From: Brucella daejeonensis
GTDB lineage: Bacteria > Pseudomonadota > Alphaproteobacteria > Rhizobiales > Rhizobiaceae
Assembly: GCF_014199265.1 (NCBI RefSeq)
Contig: NZ_JACIJG010000008.1
Span: 62,001 to 126,000 of the forward strand
DNA length: 64,000 nt
Reading direction: 5' to 3'
Shown here: piece after piece, positions 21,443 through 41,902 of the stretch
Layout: each line of letters opens with the position of its first letter
Numbering within the stretch: position 1 is the first letter of the stretch
Program-made: the position numbers and the translations under genes
The notes under the pieces: model-generated
What the model saw: only the letters and a program-made list of their open reading frames with translations
What the model was told of the DNA's origin: nothing
The model's database searches: none

Positions 21443-22594
21443 TCATTTGACAATCATATCAAGAGAATGGCGGGATAATGGCTGGGCGGCGCCATTTGTC
21501 GTCAGATATGTCCGGCCGAGCGTCATAGCCGTCTGCGTGTCGGAATCCATGATGATCATATGGGCGAAAAGCGTCATGTCGGGCTGGATGGTTTCCGGGT
21601 TCCCGGCATAGAACATCTGCGGGTCCATCCATGACGGCGTGAAGCGCGCGCCGACGGAATAGCCGCAGGCATTGAGACGGTGGCGGGTGAGGCCGTGCGC
21701 CTCCATCGTCCTGGCATGGGCGTCGAACACGTCGCCAAAGGTGGAGGCGGGCGTCATTGCCGCTTCCACCGCCTCAAGGGCTTCGCGGGCGGCTTCGTAG
21801 AGTTCCATGTGATGGCTGGTCGGCTTGCCCACGATGAGGGTGCGCATCATCGGCGCATGGTAATGGCGGAAAACGCCGGACCATTCCAGCGTGAGCTGGT
21901 CGTTTCCGTCCAGCTTGCGACGCCCCGACTTATAGCGGCAGAGCAGCGCGTCCGCGCCGGAGCCGATGATATATTCATTGGCCGGATAGTCTCCGTCGCC
22001 AGCGAAATTGGCACTCATCATGGCGGCCAGAATATCCGCCTCGTTCGCCCCGGCCCTGGTCAGCTTGACCGCGGCATCGAGCGCATCGTCGCCAAGTTCG
22101 GCGGCGCGCCTGGCATAGGCGATTTCCGCGGGGCTTTTGAGAAGGCGCAGCCGGTCCACCATGCCGGAGGCATCGTAAAGCTTGGCGAAGCTCTGCAATT
22201 GCTCGTCGAGCCTGCGGGCATTGGCCCCGGTCAGGCCGTGCGTCTGGTATTCGATGCCGATCCGGGCGCCGAGCAGGTCCTGCTCCGTCAGGATATTGCG
22301 CAGGTCAGCCGCCGGATTGGCATTATCGCGGTCCGCCCACACGACGATGTTTTCTATATTGGAGGTCTGGCGCGCCTGCCGCAGATCGGCGGAGCGCGTC
22401 ATCAGCACCATCGAGCCATCGGCCTTCACCACAAGACACTGGAAGAAGCAGAAGCCGAACGTGTCATAGCCCGTCAGCCAGTACATGCTCTCCTGCGCGA
22501 ACAGGAGAAGCGCATCCAGCTTTTCCTCTTCCATCTTCAGGATCAGGCGGTCGCGGCGTGCGGCGAATTCTTCCGGCTCGAAGTGAAGGGCCAT
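21443..22594 (-). CDS. M24 (creatinase/aminopeptidase P fold) family protein lacking metal ligands
   Basis: The 383-residue protein has the creatinase N-terminal domain (about 5-150) and pita-bread catalytic fold (about 160-380). The five metal ligands of Xaa-Pro peptidases are not kept: the segment LEWSGVFRHYHAPMMRT replaces the usual DxG...SDxTR, and FAHMIIMDS and LGRTYLTT replace the two glutamate motifs. This resembles metal-free relatives such as creatinase and the ectoine hydrolases DoeA/EutD. No eutE/doeB-type partner is nearby, so the substrate is open. It follows pgeF by 10 bases. Confidence 0.78.
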   Translation of the reverse strand: MALHFEPEEFAARRDRLILKMEEEKLDALLLFAQESMYWLTGYDTFGFCFFQCLVVKADGSMVLMTRSADLRQARQTSNIENIVVWADRDNANPAADLRNILTEQDLLGARIGIEYQTHGLTGANARRLDEQLQSFAKLYDASGMVDRLRLLKSPAEIAYARRAAELGDDALDAAVKLTRAGANEADILAAMMSANFAGDGDYPANEYIIGSGADALLCRYKSGRRKLDGNDQLTLEWSGVFRHYHAPMMRTLIVGKPTSHHMELYEAAREALEAVEAAMTPASTFGDVFDAHARTMEAHGLTRHRLNACGYSVGARFTPSWMDPQMFYAGNPETIQPDMTLFAHMIIMDSDTQTAMTLGRTYLTTNGAAQPLSRHSLDMIVK

Positions 22595-26591: not shown

Positions 26592-27092
26592 ATGGGCCTT
26601 CTTGAGCTTGAATTCGCGCGTGAGGCGCATCCTGTGGATGTGATCGAGCAGGTCGCGCATTCAAACGACTGGACGTTCGAGCGCACTGGCGACGATGAAA
26701 TCGCAATCTCGGTTGCGGGCAACTGGTCTGACTATCATATCTCGTTTTCGTGGATGGAGGATTTCGAGGCCCTGCATCTGGCCTGCGCGTTCGACATCAA
26801 GGTGGCCGAACCGCGCGTCAACGAGGTAATGCGGCTGCTCTCGCTGATCAACGAAAAGCTCCTGATGGGGCATTTCGATCTCTGGCAGCAGGAAGGCGCG
26901 ATCATGTACCGGCAGTCGCTGCTGCTGGCGGGCGGCGCGGAGCCGACCAGCCGCCAGGTGGAAGTGCTGCTGTCGGCGGCTCTCGAGGCCTGCGAGGCCT
27001 ATTTCCAGGCTTTCCAGTTCGTGGTCTGGTCGGGTGTCAGCGCGCGCGAGGCGCTGGAAAGTGTGGTGTTCGAGACAGTCGGTCGCGCCTGA
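26592..27092 (+). CDS. YbjN domain-containing protein
   Basis: The 166-residue protein matches the YbjN family (putative sensory/type III-chaperone-like fold). It starts MGLLELEFAREAHPVDVIEQ, has ISFSWMEDFEALHLACAFD and MGHFDLWQQEGAIMYRQ. AGGAAACG precedes the ATG. Its TGA is immediately joined to one of the palindromic repeats: the last two stop-codon bases merge with the repeat end. Function is unknown; the fold is linked to motility and exopolysaccharide regulation in E. coli. Confidence 0.82.
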   Translation: MGLLELEFAREAHPVDVIEQVAHSNDWTFERTGDDEIAISVAGNWSDYHISFSWMEDFEALHLACAFDIKVAEPRVNEVMRLLSLINEKLLMGHFDLWQQEGAIMYRQSLLLAGGAEPTSRQVEVLLSAALEACEAYFQAFQFVVWSGVSAREALESVVFETVGRA

Positions 27093-27236
27093 GAGCCTGT
27101 TCCAAAAGTCGTCCTGTGCGGCTGCAAATGGCAATTTGTCTGCGTTCCGGTGCTCATGTACCCAAAAGTACATTGCGCTCCGGTACTCGAAAATCACCAT
27201 TTTCGCACACACATGCCGCTTTTGAATTCAGGCTCT
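27092..27236. repeat. 145-bp palindromic repeat, copy A
   Basis: The element begins AGAGCCTGTTCCAAAAGTCG and ends TTCAGGCTCT, so its ends are an 8-bp inverted repeat. Near-full copies are at 35283 and 36470. It starts inside the stop codon of the YbjN-like gene. It may belong to the Brucella palindromic repeats (Bru-RS), but that is from memory. Confidence 0.85.
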
Positions 27237-34966: not shown

Positions 34967-35282
34967 GGGATCCGTTCCTTTTCCTTGGCGCCACCGCTCC
35001 TTCAGGGGGCGGTGGAATTACAACTTCTGCCAAGCGCACCACACACCCGGCAGAGGGTCATGCAGGCAGTTCTCGACATTGGGAAGGAACCGATCATTGC
35101 CAAAGGTGCACCTCCGGCCCGGAACTTATAGCGGCCCCGGCACGCCGTTCTTCCAGTCTTCCATTTGTTCGCTGAATGCCCGAACACGGGGAGACTGATC
35201 GAAGATGCGGTATTTGGCAAGCAAATTCTTTTGGCAGGCAGATGATTAGTAATCTTTATATCTTAATCGCGCCGATTCTTTA
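34967..35282. other. Intergenic region upstream of csp
   Basis: About 316 bases lie between the csp start and repeat copy C. They should contain the csp promoter and leader. GCGCCACCGCTCC and GGGGGCGGTGG can pair just upstream of csp. No gene is supported. Confidence 0.4.
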
Positions 35283-35427
35283 AGAGCTTGTTCCAAAAGT
35301 CGTCATGAGCGGCTGTAAATGGCAATTTTTTGCGCTCCGGTGCTCATGTACCTTTTGTACTACTCAAGCTCCGGTACTCGAAAATCACCATTTTCGCACG
35401 CACATGCCGCTTTTTGATTCAGGCTCT
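35283..35427. repeat. 145-bp palindromic repeat, copy C
   Basis: The copy begins AGAGCTTGTTCCAAAAGTCG and ends TTCAGGCTCT. Its right end overlaps the stop codon (TAG on the minus strand) of the lytic transglycosylase gene. Confidence 0.85.
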
Positions 35428-36325
35428 AACGATTTCGGGAGACTATGCAGGCGCCGCCGGCCGCGCGCAGCTTCGCGCAGATGCCGTTTGCTTCGGCGCG
35501 GCTGTTCGCGCCGATCCGCACTGCGTAGATTCCGCGCCTGCCGATCGGTGTGCGTATGCGGCTGATGACCGGGGCGTGGCCTGCAAGCACCGTGCCGAAC
35601 TGCCTGCGCAGGCGGTTCCACTGGTTGACGGCGGCGCTGCGGCGAAAATTGCCCGCAACCTGTATCCCCCACGGCTTGGGCTTTACGCGGGACATGGGAA
35701 TGGTTGCGCTGCGCACGATGGGCAGTCTGCGGCAGGCCGCACCAAAATCGAGCTTGGGGTCGAGGGGACGATTCGCTACTTCTTTTCCGGCAGCGAAATC
35801 GTCGGCGGGCGCGCCGGTGATATCGAGCACATAGTCCTCGGTTTCGAGCGGCAGGAAGCCGCCGGACCGCATCCAGCCGGAGACGCGCCCCGCCCCGGCA
35901 TTATAGGCGGCGGCTGCTAGTCCCCAATTGCCGAATGCCTGTTTCAGATCGCGCAGGAAACTCGCCGAAGCCGGGATGGCCTGTTCGATGTCGAAGGGAT
36001 CGGATAGCCCGCGCTCCTTTGCCGTATAGGGCATGAACTGGGCAATGCCCTCTGCCCCGACAGGGCTGACGGCATTATGGTCGAAGCGGCTTTCCTTCCA
36101 GATTAGACGTGCGAAAAAGTCCCTGGGAATACCGTGGGTCTCGGCATTGTCGCCGATCAGCTCGCATATGCGGTTGATGGTGGGGGCTTTTGCGGCGGGC
36201 GGCAGGGGCGGGCCATAGACGGGCGGGTTCGGCCCGACTGCGGCCCATGCCATCTGGGGACCGGACGACAGCAAAAGAAGCTGCGAAACGATCAAGATTG
36301 CCATGCCTGTCCCGTAACGCTTCAT
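35426..36325 (-). CDS. Lytic transglycosylase with C-terminal SPOR-like domain
   Basis: The 299-residue exported protein has a signal peptide (about 1-29, ending AWAA), an SLT domain with catalytic Glu78 in IWKESRFDHNAVS, then GAEGIAQFMP and AAAYNAGAGRVSGW. The C-terminal 80 residues (PWGIQVAGNF... YAVRIGANSRAEAN...) look like a SPOR domain, which binds denuded septal peptidoglycan. It should cleave glycan strands in the periplasm. The stop codon is shared with the end of repeat copy C. Confidence 0.88.
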   Translation of the reverse strand: MKRYGTGMAILIVSQLLLLSSGPQMAWAAVGPNPPVYGPPLPPAAKAPTINRICELIGDNAETHGIPRDFFARLIWKESRFDHNAVSPVGAEGIAQFMPYTAKERGLSDPFDIEQAIPASASFLRDLKQAFGNWGLAAAAYNAGAGRVSGWMRSGGFLPLETEDYVLDITGAPADDFAAGKEVANRPLDPKLDFGAACRRLPIVRSATIPMSRVKPKPWGIQVAGNFRRSAAVNQWNRLRRQFGTVLAGHAPVISRIRTPIGRRGIYAVRIGANSRAEANGICAKLRAAGGACIVSRNR

Positions 36326-36469
36326 GCCACCTGTTCCGCCCACCCGTGCCGTCGCCAAGGTAACCTAACTTTGGGCATTGTCGATACGATGCTTGTGATT
36401 TTGCGCCTGGTAATCAGAATAAAACATAGCCCGGGCCGATTGAAACAAGGTTCTATAAGGTTATGCTTA
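36326..36469. other. Intergenic region after the transglycosylase start
   Basis: About 140 bases carry no gene; this is the probable transglycosylase promoter region. Confidence 0.4.
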
Positions 36470-36613
36470 AGAGCCTGTTCCAAAAGTCGTCATGAGCGGC
36501 TGCAAATGGTAATTTTCTGCGCTCCGGTGCTCATGTACCCAAAAGTACACTCCGCTCCTGTACTCGAAAATCACCATTTTCGCACGCACATGCCGCTTTT
36601 TGTTTCAGGCCCT
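36470..36613. repeat. Palindromic repeat, copy D
   Basis: It begins AGAGCCTGTTCCAAAAGTCG and ends TTTCAGGCCCT, and is nearly identical to copies A and C. It lies upstream of the Kazal lipoprotein gene, not beside a stop codon. Confidence 0.85.
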
Positions 36614-36630
36614 AAGACATAATAGGAAGG

Positions 36631-36667: not shown

Positions 36668-36729
36668 GACAGGACCTGCCCTTACTATCCGCATTTCTAT
36701 CGGAAACCGGGTTCATCATGGAGAGGAAA

Positions 36730-37185
36730 ATGCCGTTACATTCATTGATAAGATGGAGTGTCGTCGCGGGTGCCCTGGTGCTGGCGGGCTGCGTCGCGGA
36801 GGGCGGGTCGGGCTATCGCCCGCCGGTAAAGCCGGGACCGTCGCAACCGCAAATGTGTCCGATGATCTACGCGCCGGTCTGCGCCGAGCGCGGCGGTTCG
36901 CGCAAGACTTTCGGCAATTCCTGCCAGGCGAGAGCGGACGGCTACCGGGTCGTTTCAAACGGCCAGTGCGGATCGCGACCCGGCTCCGGCTGGGGCGGAC
37001 CGGGTGTCGGGCCGGTGCGCCCGCCGCATCAGGGCAACAAGCCGGGCAGGCCGGGAGCGGGCGCCTGCACCCGCGAATATATGCCGGTCTGCGCACGGCG
37101 TGGAAACGACCGGCGCACCTTCGCCAATCGTTGCGAAGCGGAGCGCGCGGGTTACCGAATCACCAATGGCGGTCAGTGCCGCTGA
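36730..37185 (+). CDS. Lipoprotein with two Kazal-type inhibitor domains
   Basis: The 151-residue product has a signal peptide with lipobox LVLAGC (mature Cys near residue 21) and two Kazal-like domains of about 40 residues. Each has the CPMIYAPVC/CTREYMPVC start, a C near the middle and a C-terminal NGQC. Kazal domains block serine proteases with a convex loop. A Gly/Pro-rich linker (about 82-110) joins them. The start is uncertain: an ATG four codons upstream is also possible, and GGAGAGG lies between the two. It could protect the envelope against host or predator proteases, which is inference. Confidence 0.85.
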   Translation: MPLHSLIRWSVVAGALVLAGCVAEGGSGYRPPVKPGPSQPQMCPMIYAPVCAERGGSRKTFGNSCQARADGYRVVSNGQCGSRPGSGWGGPGVGPVRPPHQGNKPGRPGAGACTREYMPVCARRGNDRRTFANRCEAERAGYRITNGGQCR

Positions 37186-37218
37186 ACCGCATTCTGGTGA
37201 TTTGAGCTTTTTGGGATG

Positions 37219-37287
37219 AATCTATAGGAATAGATTTGGACATTTCGCCTCAAGGGCAGCCATGCAAATTTGCAAGAGGCGAGATGT
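37219..37287 (+). promoter_or_regulatory. Structured upstream element of the dCTP deaminase gene
   Basis: Two dyads are visible. AATCTA/TAGATT at 37219-37236 is a short stem. ACATTTCGCCTC (37240-37251) pairs with GAGGCGAGATGT (37276-37287) through 12 positions, one a G-U pair, with a 24-base loop that holds the perfect palindrome TGCAAATTTGCA. It is 44 bases before the deaminase ATG. It could be a leader, an operator or a small RNA. Confidence 0.5.
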
Positions 37288-37330
37288 TGGATAAGTATTG
37301 CAGCGAATTATGCAAAGTGCATGGTGATCT

Positions 37331-38860
37331 ATGATCTTTTTTGGGGGGGGCAAAGTGGGAGCAAAATCAATAAAGTATGCTGATAGTGTGCTCAGCGAAA
37401 ATGATGAAATAGAGGCGCGGAGCAGTGAGGAGGTAGCGCCTGCGGAATTACGTTTCACTCAAGAGTTGGTTTTCGGTATTGTTGCCCCGATTGGCTCTGG
37501 AGCTACGACGGTCGCGAAAATTCTCAAGCAAAAGATCGAAGAGAATTTTGGCTATAAAGCCGATGTTATTAAAATAAGCGAAATTATCAATGAGCGTGCA
37601 GAAAGTGTTGGTGAGAACTCTGTAGCTGCTAAAGCTCTTGATCGTGTTGAACGCCTTCAAAGTATGGGAAATAAACTTCGCGAAAAACATTCTAATGATG
37701 TTTTATCTATTCTCAGTATTGACAAAATAAATCGATCTCGTACGAATTCGGAAAATGGCGAAGACCGGCGCTTTTGTACGATTATAGATTCATTAAAGAA
37801 TCCAGAAGAGGTAGCTATTCTCAGGAAGGTATACGGTGATTTATTTTGGCTCGTCGGGGTCTTTTCTCCCGAGCACAAAAGGATAGCACGACTAGAGAAA
37901 CAAATATCAAGCTCCTCTTATTTGGCTAAAATTAAAGATGCTGACTATGACGAAGGTTCCAATTCGGGTCAATCTGTTCGAAAGACAATGAATTATGCGG
38001 ATGTTTTCTTTCGGAATGACGACGATAATTTGGATCGAATTGAAGGGTCCGCAGATCGTTTTTTGAACTTGGTGTTTGGTATCGGGGTGCAAACTCCAAC
38101 CCGCGAAGAATATGCTATGCAGGCTGCGTCCGGAGTTTCCTTAAACTCGGCGTGCCTCTCAAGGCAAGTGGGTGCAGTTATTGTTTCAGAAGCAGGGGAA
38201 ATCATTGGCCAGGGAGCTAATGATGTGCCTAAGTTTGGTGGCGGAGCCTATAGAGTTGATGATGGAAGCGGCGATCATCGTTGCCACAAATGGCAAGCAT
38301 GCCAGTGCTGGAACGATCATTATAAAGAGAAATTGTTCGATCAAATAGAAACGAAGCTTGCCCCTGATGGGAATGGTCGAATTAAGGACGATTTAAAGAA
38401 GACTGACGTTAAGAACCTGATCGAATTTTCAAGAGCGGTTCATGCTGAGATGGAGGCAATCATTTCGGTAGCAAGGCAGGGAAAAGGTGGCATCATTGGT
38501 TCCAAGCTTTTCACGACAACCTTTCCTTGTCACAGTTGCGCTCGTCATATTGTCGCTTCCGGGATACAGTCTGTAGTCTATATAGAGCCCTATCCCAAGA
38601 GTTTGGCTCTTACCTTACATTCTGACTCTATCACCACTAACCCGCAAGAAAGCGGAAAGGTTTCCTTCCTACAATATGAGGGAATTTCACCGTCAAGTTT
38701 CTCGCGGGTTTATGGATCAAAGCTTGAACGCAAAGAATCAGGTAAGATGAAGAAGAATGCCCCTAAAGAGGCACGTCCTTTAGCGTCACCGCCGTTAGAT
38801 TCGCTGGTATCACGTGAACAGCTTGTTCTGCTGTCGGTCTTAGAGAAGGAGGGAATGTAG
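37331..38860 (+). CDS. Anti-phage dCTP deaminase (AvcD family)
   Basis: The 509-residue protein has an N-terminal P-loop-like domain and a C-terminal deoxycytidylate deaminase. The N-terminal segment LVFGIVAPIGSGATTVAKIL (about 47-64) lacks the Walker A lysine. The deaminase zinc motifs are intact: His371-Ala-Glu373 (HAEMEAI) and PCHSC (Cys400, Cys403), followed by VYIEPYPKSLALTLH. A Cys/His cluster (DHRCHKWQACQCWNDH, about 315-330) precedes the active site. AvcD-type proteins deplete dCTP/dCMP after phage infection, and an RNA (AvcI) restrains the V. cholerae one. The gene is markedly AT-rich and sits between a Kazal lipoprotein and uvrB. A GTG start at 37355 is possible; a T6G8 tract lies between the two starts. 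Confidence 0.9.
   Translation: MIFFGGGKVGAKSIKYADSVLSENDEIEARSSEEVAPAELRFTQELVFGIVAPIGSGATTVAKILKQKIEENFGYKADVIKISEIINERAESVGENSVAAKALDRVERLQSMGNKLREKHSNDVLSILSIDKINRSRTNSENGEDRRFCTIIDSLKNPEEVAILRKVYGDLFWLVGVFSPEHKRIARLEKQISSSSYLAKIKDADYDEGSNSGQSVRKTMNYADVFFRNDDDNLDRIEGSADRFLNLVFGIGVQTPTREEYAMQAASGVSLNSACLSRQVGAVIVSEAGEIIGQGANDVPKFGGGAYRVDDGSGDHRCHKWQACQCWNDHYKEKLFDQIETKLAPDGNGRIKDDLKKTDVKNLIEFSRAVHAEMEAIISVARQGKGGIIGSKLFTTTFPCHSCARHIVASGIQSVVYIEPYPKSLALTLHSDSITTNPQESGKVSFLQYEGISPSSFSRVYGSKLERKESGKMKKNAPKEARPLASPPLDSLVSREQLVLLSVLEKEGM
37337..37350 (+). promoter_or_regulatory. T6G8 homopolymer tract at the deaminase start
   Basis: Six T and eight G lie three codons into the frame from ATG 37331 and just upstream of GTG 37355. 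Slippage of the G tract would shift the ATG frame; alternatively the G run may serve as the ribosome site for the GTG. Confidence 0.5.
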
Positions 38861-39036
38861 TGGCTCGAAGCGAAAGGCAGATGAGTTTTTTGCTGCCCAT
38901 AGGAGGGGCTGTACATTCGGCTAACTCACCGAAGGGGCCTAATCAAAATTCAAAAATGAATGATGAAGCAGCACAAAAACGGTATGAGCAGATTAAAAAA
39001 TCCCTTCAAAATAAGGGTTTGTTGAAATCCCAGTGA
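38860..39036 (+). CDS. Coupled micro-gene after the dCTP deaminase (58 residues)
   Basis: The GTG start overlaps the deaminase stop by one base, and GAGAAGGAGGG lies about seven bases upstream, a near-ideal ribosome site. The product begins VARSERQMSFLLPIGGAVHS, has a polar Asn/Ser centre and ends in a Lys-rich helix (AAQKRYEQIKKSLQNKGLL). An internal ATG at 38881 gives a 51-residue alternative. No family is recognised. The AT-rich base use matches the deaminase gene. It could be a partner, inhibitor or trigger of the deaminase, which is inference. Confidence 0.65.
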   Translation: MARSERQMSFLLPIGGAVHSANSPKGPNQNSKMNDEAAQKRYEQIKKSLQNKGLLKSQ

Positions 39037-39067
39037 GAGATTGCAACAATCTTTCGGGCATTGAACT

Positions 39068-41902
39068 TTAGCGCCCCGGTCGGCCCGTCTTGCCGGGGCG
39101 GCGCTTTTTGCGGGCGGTGTCCGCCGGGTCCTCGTAGGAGCCGATACCGGCGCGTTCGCGGCGGATCGGCGCTTCGCCGCCCGCCGGAATTTCGGTGCGC
39201 TTCACCGTCATCTCGTCCAGCGTATTCTTGCGGAACTTCGTCTCCGGCGCCGCAGGCAGGGGGCCTTCATGGCGCGGCTTCGCCATGTCGGTGCCCGGTC
39301 CCATATTGTCGAGCGTCGGCTTCTGGAACAGCGACGACCTGCCGCCCGCGTCATCGACGGTGCGGTGCGCCTTGCGCCCGGCATTGTGGCGGCCCTTGGT
39401 GCGCCCAGTGACGGGGCTTTCCAGTTCCACTTCGCGCGCCAGCGGATCGTCGGCAATGGCCAGTTCCGTCTCGCGCAGCCGCTTGATCTCGTCGCGCAGG
39501 CGCGCCGCCTTTTCGAAGTCGAGATCGGCGGCGGCGTCGCGCATCTGCTTTTCCAGATATTCCAGATGGGCGGTGAGATTGTTGCCCATCATCGCGCCCT
39601 CTTCGGCAAAGCCGGAAATATCGGCGCGAACATGGTCGCGTTCGTAGACCGAATCCAGAATGTCCGAAATATTCTTCTTCACCGAGGCCGGCGTGATGCC
39701 GTGCTCTTCATTATAGGCTTCCTGCTTCTCGCGGCGGCGACTGGTTTCGTCCATCGCGCGCTGCATCGAGCCGGTGATGTTGTCGGCGTAGAGAATGACC
39801 TTGCCGTCGACGTTACGCGCCGCACGGCCAATCGTCTGGATGAGTGAGGTTTCGGAACGCAGGAAACCTTCCTTGTCGGCGTCGAGGATGGCGACGAAAC
39901 CGCATTCGGGAATGTCGAGACCCTCGCGCAGCAGGTTGATGCCAACCAGCACGTCGAAAGCGCCAAGCCGCAAGTCGCGGATGATCTCGATGCGCTCCAG
40001 CGTGTCGATGTCGGAATGCATGTAGCGCACACGCACGCCTTGCTCGTGCAGATATTCGGTGAGGTCTTCGGCCATGCGCTTGGTCAGCACCGTGACCAGC
40101 GTGCGGTAGCCCTTCGTGGCCGTGTCGCGGATTTCGCCCAGCACGTCGTCGACCTGACTTTTGGCGGGACGGATTTCCACCGGCGGGTCGATCAGGCCGG
40201 TCGGGCGAATGACCTGTTCGGCAAAGACACCGCCCGCTTCTTCCATTTCCCAGCCGCCGGGCGTCGCCGAAACCGCGATGGTCTGCGGACGCATGGCGTC
40301 CCATTCCTCGAAGCGCAGCGGGCGGTTATCCATGCAGGACGGCAGGCGGAAGCCATATTCGGCCAGCGTGGCCTTGCGGCGGAAGTCGCCGCGATACATG
40401 CCGCCGATCTGTGGTACGGTGACATGGCTTTCATCGATGAAGACGAGGGCATTGTCGGGGATATATTCGAAAAGCGTTGGCGGCGGCTCGCCGGGATTGC
40501 GCCCGGTCAGATAGCGCGAATAGTTTTCGATGCCAGCGCAGGAGCCGGTGGCCTCCAGCATTTCGAGGTCGAAGGTCGTGCGCTGGTCGAGGCGCTGCGC
40601 TTCCAGCAACCGTCCGGCACGGGTCAGTTCGTCAAGGCGGTGCTTCAGCTCTTCCTTGATCGACTTGATCGCCTGATTGAGCGTCGGGCGCGGCGTGACA
40701 TAGTGCGAATTGGCGTAGATCTTGACCGATTTCAGGTCGCCGGTTTTCTGGCCGGTGAGCGGGTCGAATTCGGTGATGGTTTCGATCTCGTCGCCAAACA
40801 GCGAAATGCGCCAGGCCCGGTCCTCAAGGTGAGCCGGGAACAATTCGATCGTATCGCCGCGCACGCGGAACGAGCCGCGCACGAAATTGATGTCCTGCCG
40901 CTTGTATTGCTGCGCCACCAGATCGGCCAGAAGCTGGCGCTGGTCGAGCCGGTCGCCGATCTTCATCTCGAAGGTCATGGCGGTATAGGTCTCGACCGAG
41001 CCGATACCGTAGATGCACGACACGGAAGCGACGATGATCACATCGTCGCGTTCGAGCAGCGCGCGGGTGGCCGAGTGGCGCATCCGGTCGATCTGTTCGT
41101 TGATCGAGGATTCCTTCTCGATATAGGTGTCCGAGCGCGGCACATAGGCTTCGGGCTGGTAGTAGTCATAGTAGGAGACGAAATACTCGACCGCATTGTT
41201 CGGAAAGAAGCTCTTGAACTCGCCATAGAGCTGCGCCGCAAGCGTCTTGTTCGGCGCGAGGATGAGCGCCGGGCGCTGCGTCTGCTCGATCACCTTGGCC
41301 ATGGTGAAGGTCTTGCCCGAACCCGTCACGCCGAGAAGAACCTGCGTGCGGTCCTGATTTTCCAGCCCTTCCGCCAGATCGCGAATGGCCGTCGGCTGGT
41401 CACCGGACGGCTCGAAACTAGTTTCCATCTCGATGGCGATGCCGCCTTCGGATTTTTCGGGCCGGACCGGGCGATGAGGCGTCCAGAGTTCGCCGTTCTT
41501 GAACAGCGGATTGCCGGAAGCGATCAGGTCCGAGAGGGCCTGAACCGTCGCCGTCGCACCGGAGGGGTTGAGCCCGGCGGCGTCTTCGAGGCTGATGTCG
41601 AGGCCAGCAACCGGGTTAAGCCCGGCCGCCGCGCGTTCCTTCGCCGAAGCCGCGCCGCCCATGGAGGTGCCGCGTCCTGTGCGCGACGCTTCCTTGCTGC
41701 GCTCGGGTATCTTCTTTGGTGTCTTGGGGGCCGTTCGGGAAGCCTTGGCGCGGGGCTTTGCCGCCTCGTCACCGATTTCCTTCGCCCAGTCGGCGATCGA
41801 GCCGGAAAGCGGCGTGCCGGAAAATTCAGCCTGTGGCGCTTCACCGAAGCCGCCAGCCCTGTCGTGCGAATCCCGGGAGTGTTTGTCTTTTGAGGAAGCC
41901 AT
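39068..41902 (-). CDS. uvrB: Excinuclease ABC subunit B
   Basis: UvrB is the damage-verifying helicase-like core of nucleotide excision repair. The 944-residue product is longer than the usual 670: about 155 extra N-terminal residues (Ser/Ala/Lys-rich) and about 90 C-terminal residues. The core begins at [14 protein letters not shown] (about 163), with Walker A GVTGSGKT (191-198), [12 protein letters not shown] (beta-hairpin region), [19 protein letters not shown] and a C-terminal UVR motif. The 3' end faces the deaminase island. The N-terminal extension is common in this bacterial group. Confidence 0.95.

What the first reader, a model, noticed from the sequence alone, without database searches (positions are those of the whole stretch)
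37186..39060. AT-rich anti-phage dCTP deaminase island between a Kazal lipoprotein and uvrB
The sequence shows a two-domain protein with intact deaminase zinc motifs (HAE, PCHSC) and a P-loop-like N-terminus without lysine, in a block much more AT-rich than its neighbours. Established knowledge: AvcD-type dCTP deaminases defend against phages by depleting cytosine nucleotides. Inference: this is an acquired defence module at an intergenic insertion site in a housekeeping region.
Basis: partly seen in the sequence, partly recalled or inferred. Interest (0 to 1): 0.75.

Follow-up and report, generated by a model that had tools for sequence, protein, structure and literature searches.

The report
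Phage-defence deaminase with clamp-motif partner
The block holds an acquired anti-phage enzyme gene of a known family, followed by a tiny overlooked partner gene whose relatives carry the short motif that many proteins use to grip the DNA-replication clamp, which suggests that this kind of defence is wired to the replication machinery.

Summary
The AT-rich ORF (window 37355-38860) is an AvcD-type anti-phage dCTP deaminase: NCBIfam NF041025 474 bits, cut-off 400; PADLOC dCTPase 543 bits. A real copy is in 1 of 35 genomes of the genus. The Kazal-uvrB interval differs widely among the 28 congeners read and holds avcD in none; two have a reverse transcriptase there, Drt2 in the one scored.

Missed: a second gene, 58 codons (38860-39036), overlapping the avcD stop and preceded by AGGAGG, over no family's cut-off. 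Similar small ORFs follow avcD in 25 of 25 members of its AvcD clade and 8 of 8 of a second clade; a third clade has a larger, different partner in 11 of 12. Both partner kinds mostly carry an N-terminal motif like that of DnaN-clamp ligands. The published clamp consensus occurs downstream of avcD in 7 of 22 independently fetched viral-contig loci, against 1 and 2 of 22 in controls. The window's own copy, QMSFLL, departs from the strict consensus. Clamp binding and control of AvcD by the partner are inferred, not shown.

The parts
36718..37185 (+).
   Evidence: DNA match in 31 of 35 genus genomes, G004 only 44 bp
37186..37354 (+). AT-rich leader (GC 43%) with a 13-bp hairpin and a G8 tract (37343-37350) just before the probable start; no sign found of a conserved AvcI-like RNA
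37355..38860 (+). avcD: anti-phage dCTP deaminase, 501 aa from GTG 37355 (509 aa if ATG 37331 is used)
37475..37513 (+). P-loop-like GIVAPIGSGATTV; no lysine at the Walker position, here or in the other 20 AvcD rows of alignment A3
38441..38449 (+). HAE zinc/catalytic motif
38525..38539 (+). PCHSC zinc motif
38847..38852 (+). AGGAGG, ribosome-binding-like site inside the avcD end, before the second gene
38860..39036 (+). Partner gene, 58 aa, GTG start overlapping the avcD stop; relatives follow the other avcD genes of its clade
38878..38895 (+). QMSFLL: the window's version of the N-terminal clamp-binding-like motif (M at position 2 and F at 4 depart from the published consensus)
39068..41902 (-).

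Best explanation
An acquired two-gene anti-phage operon at a variable, defence-prone site beside uvrB. Gene 1 is an AvcD-type deaminase that, when switched on during infection, turns dCTP/dCMP into dUTP/dUMP and starves phage DNA synthesis (family knowledge). Gene 2 is a translationally coupled 58-aa partner with a short N-terminal motif that most likely docks on the DNA sliding clamp (host or phage DnaN), and a C-terminal helix that may hold AvcD. My reading is that the partner is the regulator/sensor of this AvcD lineage: it ties the deaminase's state or place to the replication clamp, in the role that the AvcI RNA plays in the Vibrio systems. Shown: AvcD family, variable site, reality and AvcD-linkage of the partner, enrichment of the motif in its family. 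Inferred: clamp binding, AvcD binding, direction of control.
For: AvcD: NF041025 474 bits, PADLOC dCTPase 2.8e-163; the model matches dCMP deaminases and an adenylate-kinase-related protein. Partner is a real gene: verified ORFs start within -20 to +94 nt of the avcD stop in 19 first-set loci; its HMM also found L004 and L105, and L157 has a motif ORF. Four pairs, three of them among L105, L106 and L134, show pS 0.69-0.91 against pN 0.19-0.40. Linkage: the partner profile hits 6 of 397 order genomes, all beside an AvcD of its clade, one (G922) not in the alignment (at most 15 candidates per genome were scored); next best hit in the own genome E 0.24. Lineage: 25/25 and 8/8 in two clades. Motif: published clamp consensus (PMC13254535, passages) within 60 aa in 7/19 A partners and 4/10 B partners, against 0.29 and 0.22 expected in shuffles and 27/416 natural ORFs; exact QL[SD]LF in 3/10 B and 0/416. 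By position: first set 11 of 67 loci against 1 and 0 in controls; out of sample 7 of 22 against 1 and 2. B partners are fused to a TIR domain in L087 and L163, as fits a sensing module. An Hda-like protein of the genome (103 bits, under the cut-off of 194.8) has QIPLNL near its N-terminus. The genome holds three dnaN genes, one beside phage-type SSB and exonuclease genes.
Against: The window's own motif QMSFLL fails the strict published consensus, as do 12 of 19 A partners (window included) and 6 of 10 B partners. The loose pattern was read off the data and also turns up in chance frames (12.7% of control ORFs; L196 and L199). No binding, expression, activity or phage test exists here. The model of L105, where AvcD and partner share one frame, gave a disordered motif and a helix at about 70, with no docking information. 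The motif could serve AvcD binding instead. 13 of 14 AvcDs of the group with the E. coli, Klebsiella and Photobacterium plasmid copies have no motif ORF found, nor do the 21 'O' and 6 'C' AvcDs of the first tree, so the feature is not family-wide.
Confidence: 0.55

Rival explanations
1. The shared N-terminal motif is a docking peptide for AvcD itself, not for the clamp; A and B partners share it because both bind AvcD. The partner is then a plain protein antitoxin (type II-like).
For: Strong profile hits of both partner kinds lie only beside AvcD. The 16 weak hits of the B profile, none with AvcD within its 1.5-kb flanks, lack the published consensus in their first 110 residues, though three have a loose match (L165, L170, L178).
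Against: Three B partners carry exact QL[SD]LF, absent from 416 control ORFs; several viral-contig partners match the clamp consensus (QLELDF, QLDLDF, QLSLDF). 13 of 14 AvcDs of the plasmid-copy group have no motif ORF found downstream.
Confidence: 0.2
2. The partner is a second effector: like SocB of Caulobacter it occupies the clamp pocket and blocks replication while AvcD drains dCTP.
For: SocB is a toxin that binds the clamp through a clamp-binding motif (PMC9690074, passages); the partner is small with an N-terminal motif.
Against: A C-terminal L...G is also partly conserved (consensus); in B the motif heads a larger domain, twice fused to TIR, which looks like sensing rather than simple blocking.
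Confidence: 0.12
3. An ordinary AvcID type III system: an RNA antitoxin in the 169-nt leader controls AvcD and the small ORF is incidental.
For: Leader forms a 13-bp hairpin; AvcI lies next to avcD in Vibrio (PMC10511110 and PMC12409362, passages).
Against: No Rfam match over its gathering score (I do not know that Rfam holds AvcI); z only -1.46; leader not visibly conserved in L003; the small ORF is under purifying selection and clade-wide.
Confidence: 0.08
4. A nucleotide-salvage dCMP/dCTP deaminase without a defence role.
For: The deaminase domain is shared with dCMP deaminases.
Against: Two-domain anti-phage family score; patchy presence at a variable site.
Confidence: 0.03

Closest known systems
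AvcD / anti-phage dCTP deaminase (AvcID of Vibrio; NF041025; PADLOC dCTPase)
   Same: Deaminase with N-terminal P-loop-like domain, intact zinc motifs, patchy defence gene.
   Different: Has a downstream coupled protein partner; no sign found in the window of the AvcI RNA. The partner matches no NCBIfam or PADLOC model.
Sliding-clamp ligands (Hda, MutS, RecB, polymerases) with a clamp-binding motif
   Same: Short Q-x-x-hydrophobic-x-hydrophobic motif near the N-terminus, disordered in the L105 model; an Hda-like protein of the genome has QIPLNL near its N-terminus.
   Different: The window's copy is off-consensus; no binding shown; 58 aa with no recognised domain.
SocAB toxin-antitoxin (SocB binds DnaN)
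   Same: Clamp-binding motif in a toxin-antitoxin setting in an alphaproteobacterium.
   Different: No homology test made; here the motif protein accompanies a deaminase effector.
DUF488
   Same: The B profile's weak hits include DUF488 proteins (3 of 3 tested by Pfam; profile E 1.8e-7 to 6.7e-6), so B is distantly DUF488-like.
   Different: Pfam reports DUF488 under its cut-off in one B partner (L164, E 0.016) and not at all in six others tested; B partners have the motif and sit beside avcD.

Membership tests
Anti-phage dCTP deaminase (AvcD) | Score over the curated cut-off of NF041025 (400 bits) | tested here: met
   474.3 bits, profile 1-437 of 437; PADLOC dCTPase 543 bits
Anti-phage dCTP deaminase (AvcD) | Intact HxE and PCxxC zinc site | tested here: met
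Anti-phage dCTP deaminase (AvcD) | N-terminal P-loop-kinase-like domain joined to a deaminase domain | tested here: met
   Foldseek: dCMP deaminases and adenylate-kinase-related 3lw7 among the best hits (model pLDDT 79.7); the Walker lysine is absent in all 21 AvcD rows of A3
Anti-phage dCTP deaminase (AvcD) | dC-nucleotide deamination and phage protection | not testable with these tools
   needs assays
AvcID type III toxin-antitoxin | Inhibitory RNA AvcI next to avcD | tested here: inconclusive
   No Rfam match over its gathering score, weak fold, leader not conserved with L003; no AvcI model built; no Vibrio AvcD placed on the trees
Sliding-clamp ligand | Published consensus Q-phi-x-[L/M][F/L] or Q-phi-x-[L/M]-x-[F/L] in the window's own partner | tested here: not met
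   QMSFLL (consensus)
Sliding-clamp ligand | Same consensus in the partner's relatives, above chance | tested here: met
   7/19 A and 4/10 B; 7/22 viral-contig loci, controls 1/22 and 2/22; first set 11/67, controls 1 and 0
Sliding-clamp ligand | Binding to DnaN | not testable with these tools
   no complex prediction offered
SocB | Sequence homology to SocB | not tested
   SocB was not fetched
Defence hotspot | Same flanks, different defence cargo in relatives | tested here: met
   28 congeners read; Drt2 in L051, its 77%-identical twin in L068; five other avcD loci beside uvrB

The most novel reading that the evidence does not exclude
A large part of the AvcD family is coupled to replication: three AvcD lineages each encode, downstream of avcD, a protein with a DnaN-clamp-binding motif, from two partner families with no detectable kinship, one of them sometimes fused to a TIR effector. 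The clamp, host or phage-encoded, would be the trigger or the docking site of dCTP-depletion immunity, with the protein in place of the AvcI RNA (absence of an RNA was looked at only in the window).
Probability: 0.4. Interest if true: 0.85.

Novelty: new variant of a known kind. Interest (0 to 1): 0.7.

Why it matters
AvcD is known as an RNA-controlled toxin switched on by transcription shut-off. If whole lineages instead use a protein partner that reads or rides the replication clamp, dCTP-depletion immunity gains a second, replication-based control principle. The defence and protein-family models used here (PADLOC, NCBIfam, Pfam, PHROGs) do not describe the partner. The claim can be tested with short peptides and DnaN. 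In the held library 0 papers hold both 'AvcD' and 'sliding clamp'; the broader searches showed capped lists with none on this. The library is partial and the founding 2022 AvcD paper is not held, so priority is not established.

Tried and rejected
AvcI-like RNA in the leader: Rfam gave only a sub-threshold Twister-sister match near the uvrB end on the other strand; z -1.46; no visible conservation with L003; the only other genome match of the leader is 25 bases at E 0.09. I did not build a covariance model.

A viral-contig scan with P0001 alone found nothing; with the clade alignment it found 22 loci.

Until then I had noted it as an exception.

A mixed alignment of AvcD and partners for a fold of the L105 frame placed the partner rows wrongly and was dropped; the fold without them gave no docking information.

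Homology of the small partners with the upstream ORF of the plasmid-copy group was tested and not shown (hhalign probability 6% or less), nor with B partners (4%); A partners against the viral-contig partners reached 88%.

A third, W..W-type small partner (6 loci) carries no such motif and was not pursued. Identification of the genus by plasmid similarity was inconclusive.

Rows dropped: 10 of 75 from the first tree (fragments and repeats of one genome or near-identical plasmid). The second tree used 67 rows, leaving out most of the no-partner and W..W rows.

Full report
WHAT IS THERE. Between a Kazal-type lipoprotein gene and convergent uvrB lies a 1.88-kb AT-rich block. avcD is 44.4% GC, against 59.4% for the window, 67.7% for the Kazal gene and 63.0% for uvrB. 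It holds two genes, not one. The first (37331-38860 by the longest ORF) probably starts at GTG 37355, just after a G8 tract; this gives 501 aa, as in the nearest relative, L003 of Neorhizobium vignae. The second, 38860-39036, begins with a GTG that shares a base with the avcD stop and is preceded by AGGAGG inside the avcD end.

GENE 1. NCBIfam NF041025 'anti-phage dCTP deaminase' scores 474 bits over the full profile (cut-off 400), PADLOC dCTPase 543 bits. Deaminase Pfam models match within 258-426. HAE and PCHSC are invariant in the 20 rows of A4. The P-loop-like segment lacks the lysine in all 21 AvcD rows of A3, so this is a clade trait and not decay. The AlphaFold model (pLDDT 79.7) matches dCMP deaminases and an adenylate-kinase-related protein. 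Catalysis and phage protection rest on family knowledge (AvcID: PMC10511110, passages; PMC12409362, passages).

SITE. In the genus 2 of 35 genomes match P0001 at E 0.001, but the second (G011, 20 bits, stops inside) is not an AvcD. I read the Kazal-uvrB interval in 28 of the 34 congeners; G009, G017, G026 and G028 had no Kazal match, G004 only 44 bp of it, and G022 (short contig) was not fetched. Contents (gene names without a call are recalled): 8 nearly empty (22-198 bp); 12 with a quinone-oxidoreductase-like gene, in 8 of them with an HxlR-like regulator printed (HxlR by Pfam on the first 90 residues of one); 2 AT-rich loci with a 491-aa reverse transcriptase (L051: PADLOC Drt2 1.4e-129; L068 is 77% identical to it); 3 with LysR-, aldo-keto-reductase- and SDR-like genes; 1 cupin-like; 1 with an unknown 567-aa protein (no PADLOC or Pfam hit); 1 with an unknown 164-aa protein. 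Beyond the genus avcD is again convergent with uvrB in 5 of 96 other AvcD-bearing stretches, repeats of one genome and short flanks included (count): L003 (356 nt), L004 (134), L010 (761 to the aligned part), L152 (21) and L114 (17), the last two with AvcDs of a distant group. AvcDs over the family cut-off are in 14 of 385 class genomes and 16 of 297 family genomes, own genome included in both.

GENE 2 IS REAL. No hit over a cut-off in Pfam (best: Myb-like, 14.6 bits, cut-off 27), and none listed in PADLOC, NCBIfam or PHROGs. In the first 45 relatives examined, 13 had a short ORF at the avcD stop with an N-terminal Q-x-x-hydrophobic-x-hydrophobic motif; one search added five (three seen by eye) and a possible sixth (Pantoea L157). 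The HMM built from 19 loci then found it in L004, which I had taken for an exception, and in L105, where the partner shares one open frame with a seemingly frame-shifted avcD end. Selection: pS/pN 0.80/0.40, 0.69/0.20, 0.79/0.19, 0.91/0.22 in four pairs (three share members), 0.86/0.57 in a fifth, more distant one. A profile search of 397 genomes of the order gave 6 hits, all next to AvcDs of this clade; five were in the alignment, one (G922) was not; at most 15 candidates a genome were scored. Its best other hit in the own genome is E 0.24.

SECOND PARTNER KIND. A separate AvcD clade has a downstream protein of mostly 150-200 aa with an N-terminal motif: QLSLF twice, QLDLF, QLSFRF, QLSFPY, QLALPY, QGELEL; L084 lacks it. 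The profile's four strong hits in 397 genomes all lie directly after avcD; two, G556 (7e-18, QASLF) and G1079 (1.6e-11, QHSLF), were not in the alignment; a third newcomer is L087 (QSNLF). The 16 weak hits have no AvcD in their 1.5-kb flanks and no published-consensus motif in the first 110 residues; three have a loose match. Three of them tested are DUF488 by Pfam. The B partners themselves are only distantly so: Pfam lists DUF488 for one (L164, E 0.016, under cut-off) and not for six others. In L163 and L087 the partner is fused to a TIR domain (TIR_2 1.9e-18 and 1.7e-21).

THE MOTIF. A review gives QL(S/D)LF and names SocB and Hda as clamp binders (PMC9690074, passages); a newer paper gives Q-phi-x-[L/M][F/L] and Q-phi-x-[L/M]-x-[F/L] (PMC13254535, passages). 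By that rule, in the first 60 residues: 7 of 19 A partners and 4 of 10 B partners, against 0.29 and 0.22 expected after shuffling and 27 of 416 natural control ORFs (several of the 27 are copies of one orthologue); exact QL[SD]LF 3 of 10 B and 0 of 416. The looser pattern (19/19 and 9/10, 53/416 in controls) was read off these data and is not independent. The window's QMSFLL, with M2 and F4, does not meet the strict rule. By position alone (open frames starting -130 to +150 of the avcD stop): first set 11 of 67 loci, antisense control 1, further-downstream control 0; out of sample, 22 IMG/VR loci found by AvcD alone, 7 of 22 against 1 and 2. By the looser view, partly by eye, 12 of 22 have a motif ORF; chance loose matches also occur in other frames, for example in L196 and L199. 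An Hda-like protein of the genome (under the Hda cut-off) carries QIPLNL near its N-terminus.

LINEAGES. Tree of 65 AvcDs: partner labels need 6 changes, shuffled mean 35.7. With the viral loci (67 rows, quick tree, labels by the looser view): small motif partner in 25/25 of the window's clade (five viral loci unused in any profile), 8/8 in a second clade, B partner in 11/12, and 13/14 of the group holding the E. coli, Klebsiella and Photobacterium plasmid copies without one (L203 is the exception). I call that group gamma-type; no Vibrio AvcD was placed on the tree, so its tie to AvcI is assumed. The 21 'O' and 6 'C' rows of the first tree have no motif partner found, so this is not a feature of the whole family.

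MECHANISM. Most likely the partner links AvcD to the replication clamp and controls it; the TIR fusions of the B kind suggest sensing. Of three dnaN genes in the genome, one lies beside phage-type SSB and exonuclease genes and one beside a phage-family protein of unknown function, so this host meets foreign clamps, a conceivable trigger. These steps are inference. The main rival is that the motif binds AvcD.

Noticed in passing
L154, L155, L156, L158, L160, L196, L199, L205, L212 (within 345 nt before avcD): All 9 gamma-type loci examined upstream (8 distinct; five avcD starts chosen by me) have a small ORF ending in W-stop just before avcD, next to avcD as AvcI is, which is described as non-coding; it may code for a conserved peptide.
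   Followed up: partly
L051 and L068 (Kazal-uvrB interval): AT-rich reverse-transcriptase islands (L051 Drt2 by PADLOC; twins 77% identical) with a roughly 400-nt leader at the same site in two congeners.
   Followed up: partly
L072 and L047 (Kazal-uvrB interval): Unknown 567-aa gene (no PADLOC or Pfam hit) and 164-aa gene (PADLOC Csm2 at E 0.015 only) at the same site: candidates for new defence genes. L047 seems by eye to carry a second copy of the uvrB 3' end.
   Followed up: partly
L087, L163 (downstream of avcD): B-type motif partner fused to a TIR domain.
   Followed up: partly
L078, L082, L083, L085, L116, L015 (downstream of avcD): A third small partner family with a W..W core, 49-67 aa, without the clamp-like motif.
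   Followed up: no
Own genome C1:210726, C15:30480, C2:14121: Three dnaN genes; the C2 copy lies beside phage-type SSB and Cas4-like exonuclease genes, the C15 copy beside a phage-family protein of unknown function.
   Followed up: partly
window 27092-27236, 35280-35429, 36467-36615: Three copies of a repeat of about 145 bp, 86-92% alike, one just before the Kazal gene.
   Followed up: no
window 37343-37350: G8 tract directly before the probable avcD start; its length could affect translation.
   Followed up: no
window 22439-22533: ARAGORN reports an odd tRNA-like element without a clear anticodon.
   Followed up: no
L105 1390-3084: avcD and partner in one open frame of 565 codons from its ATG; the avcD end looks frame-shifted.
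   Followed up: partly
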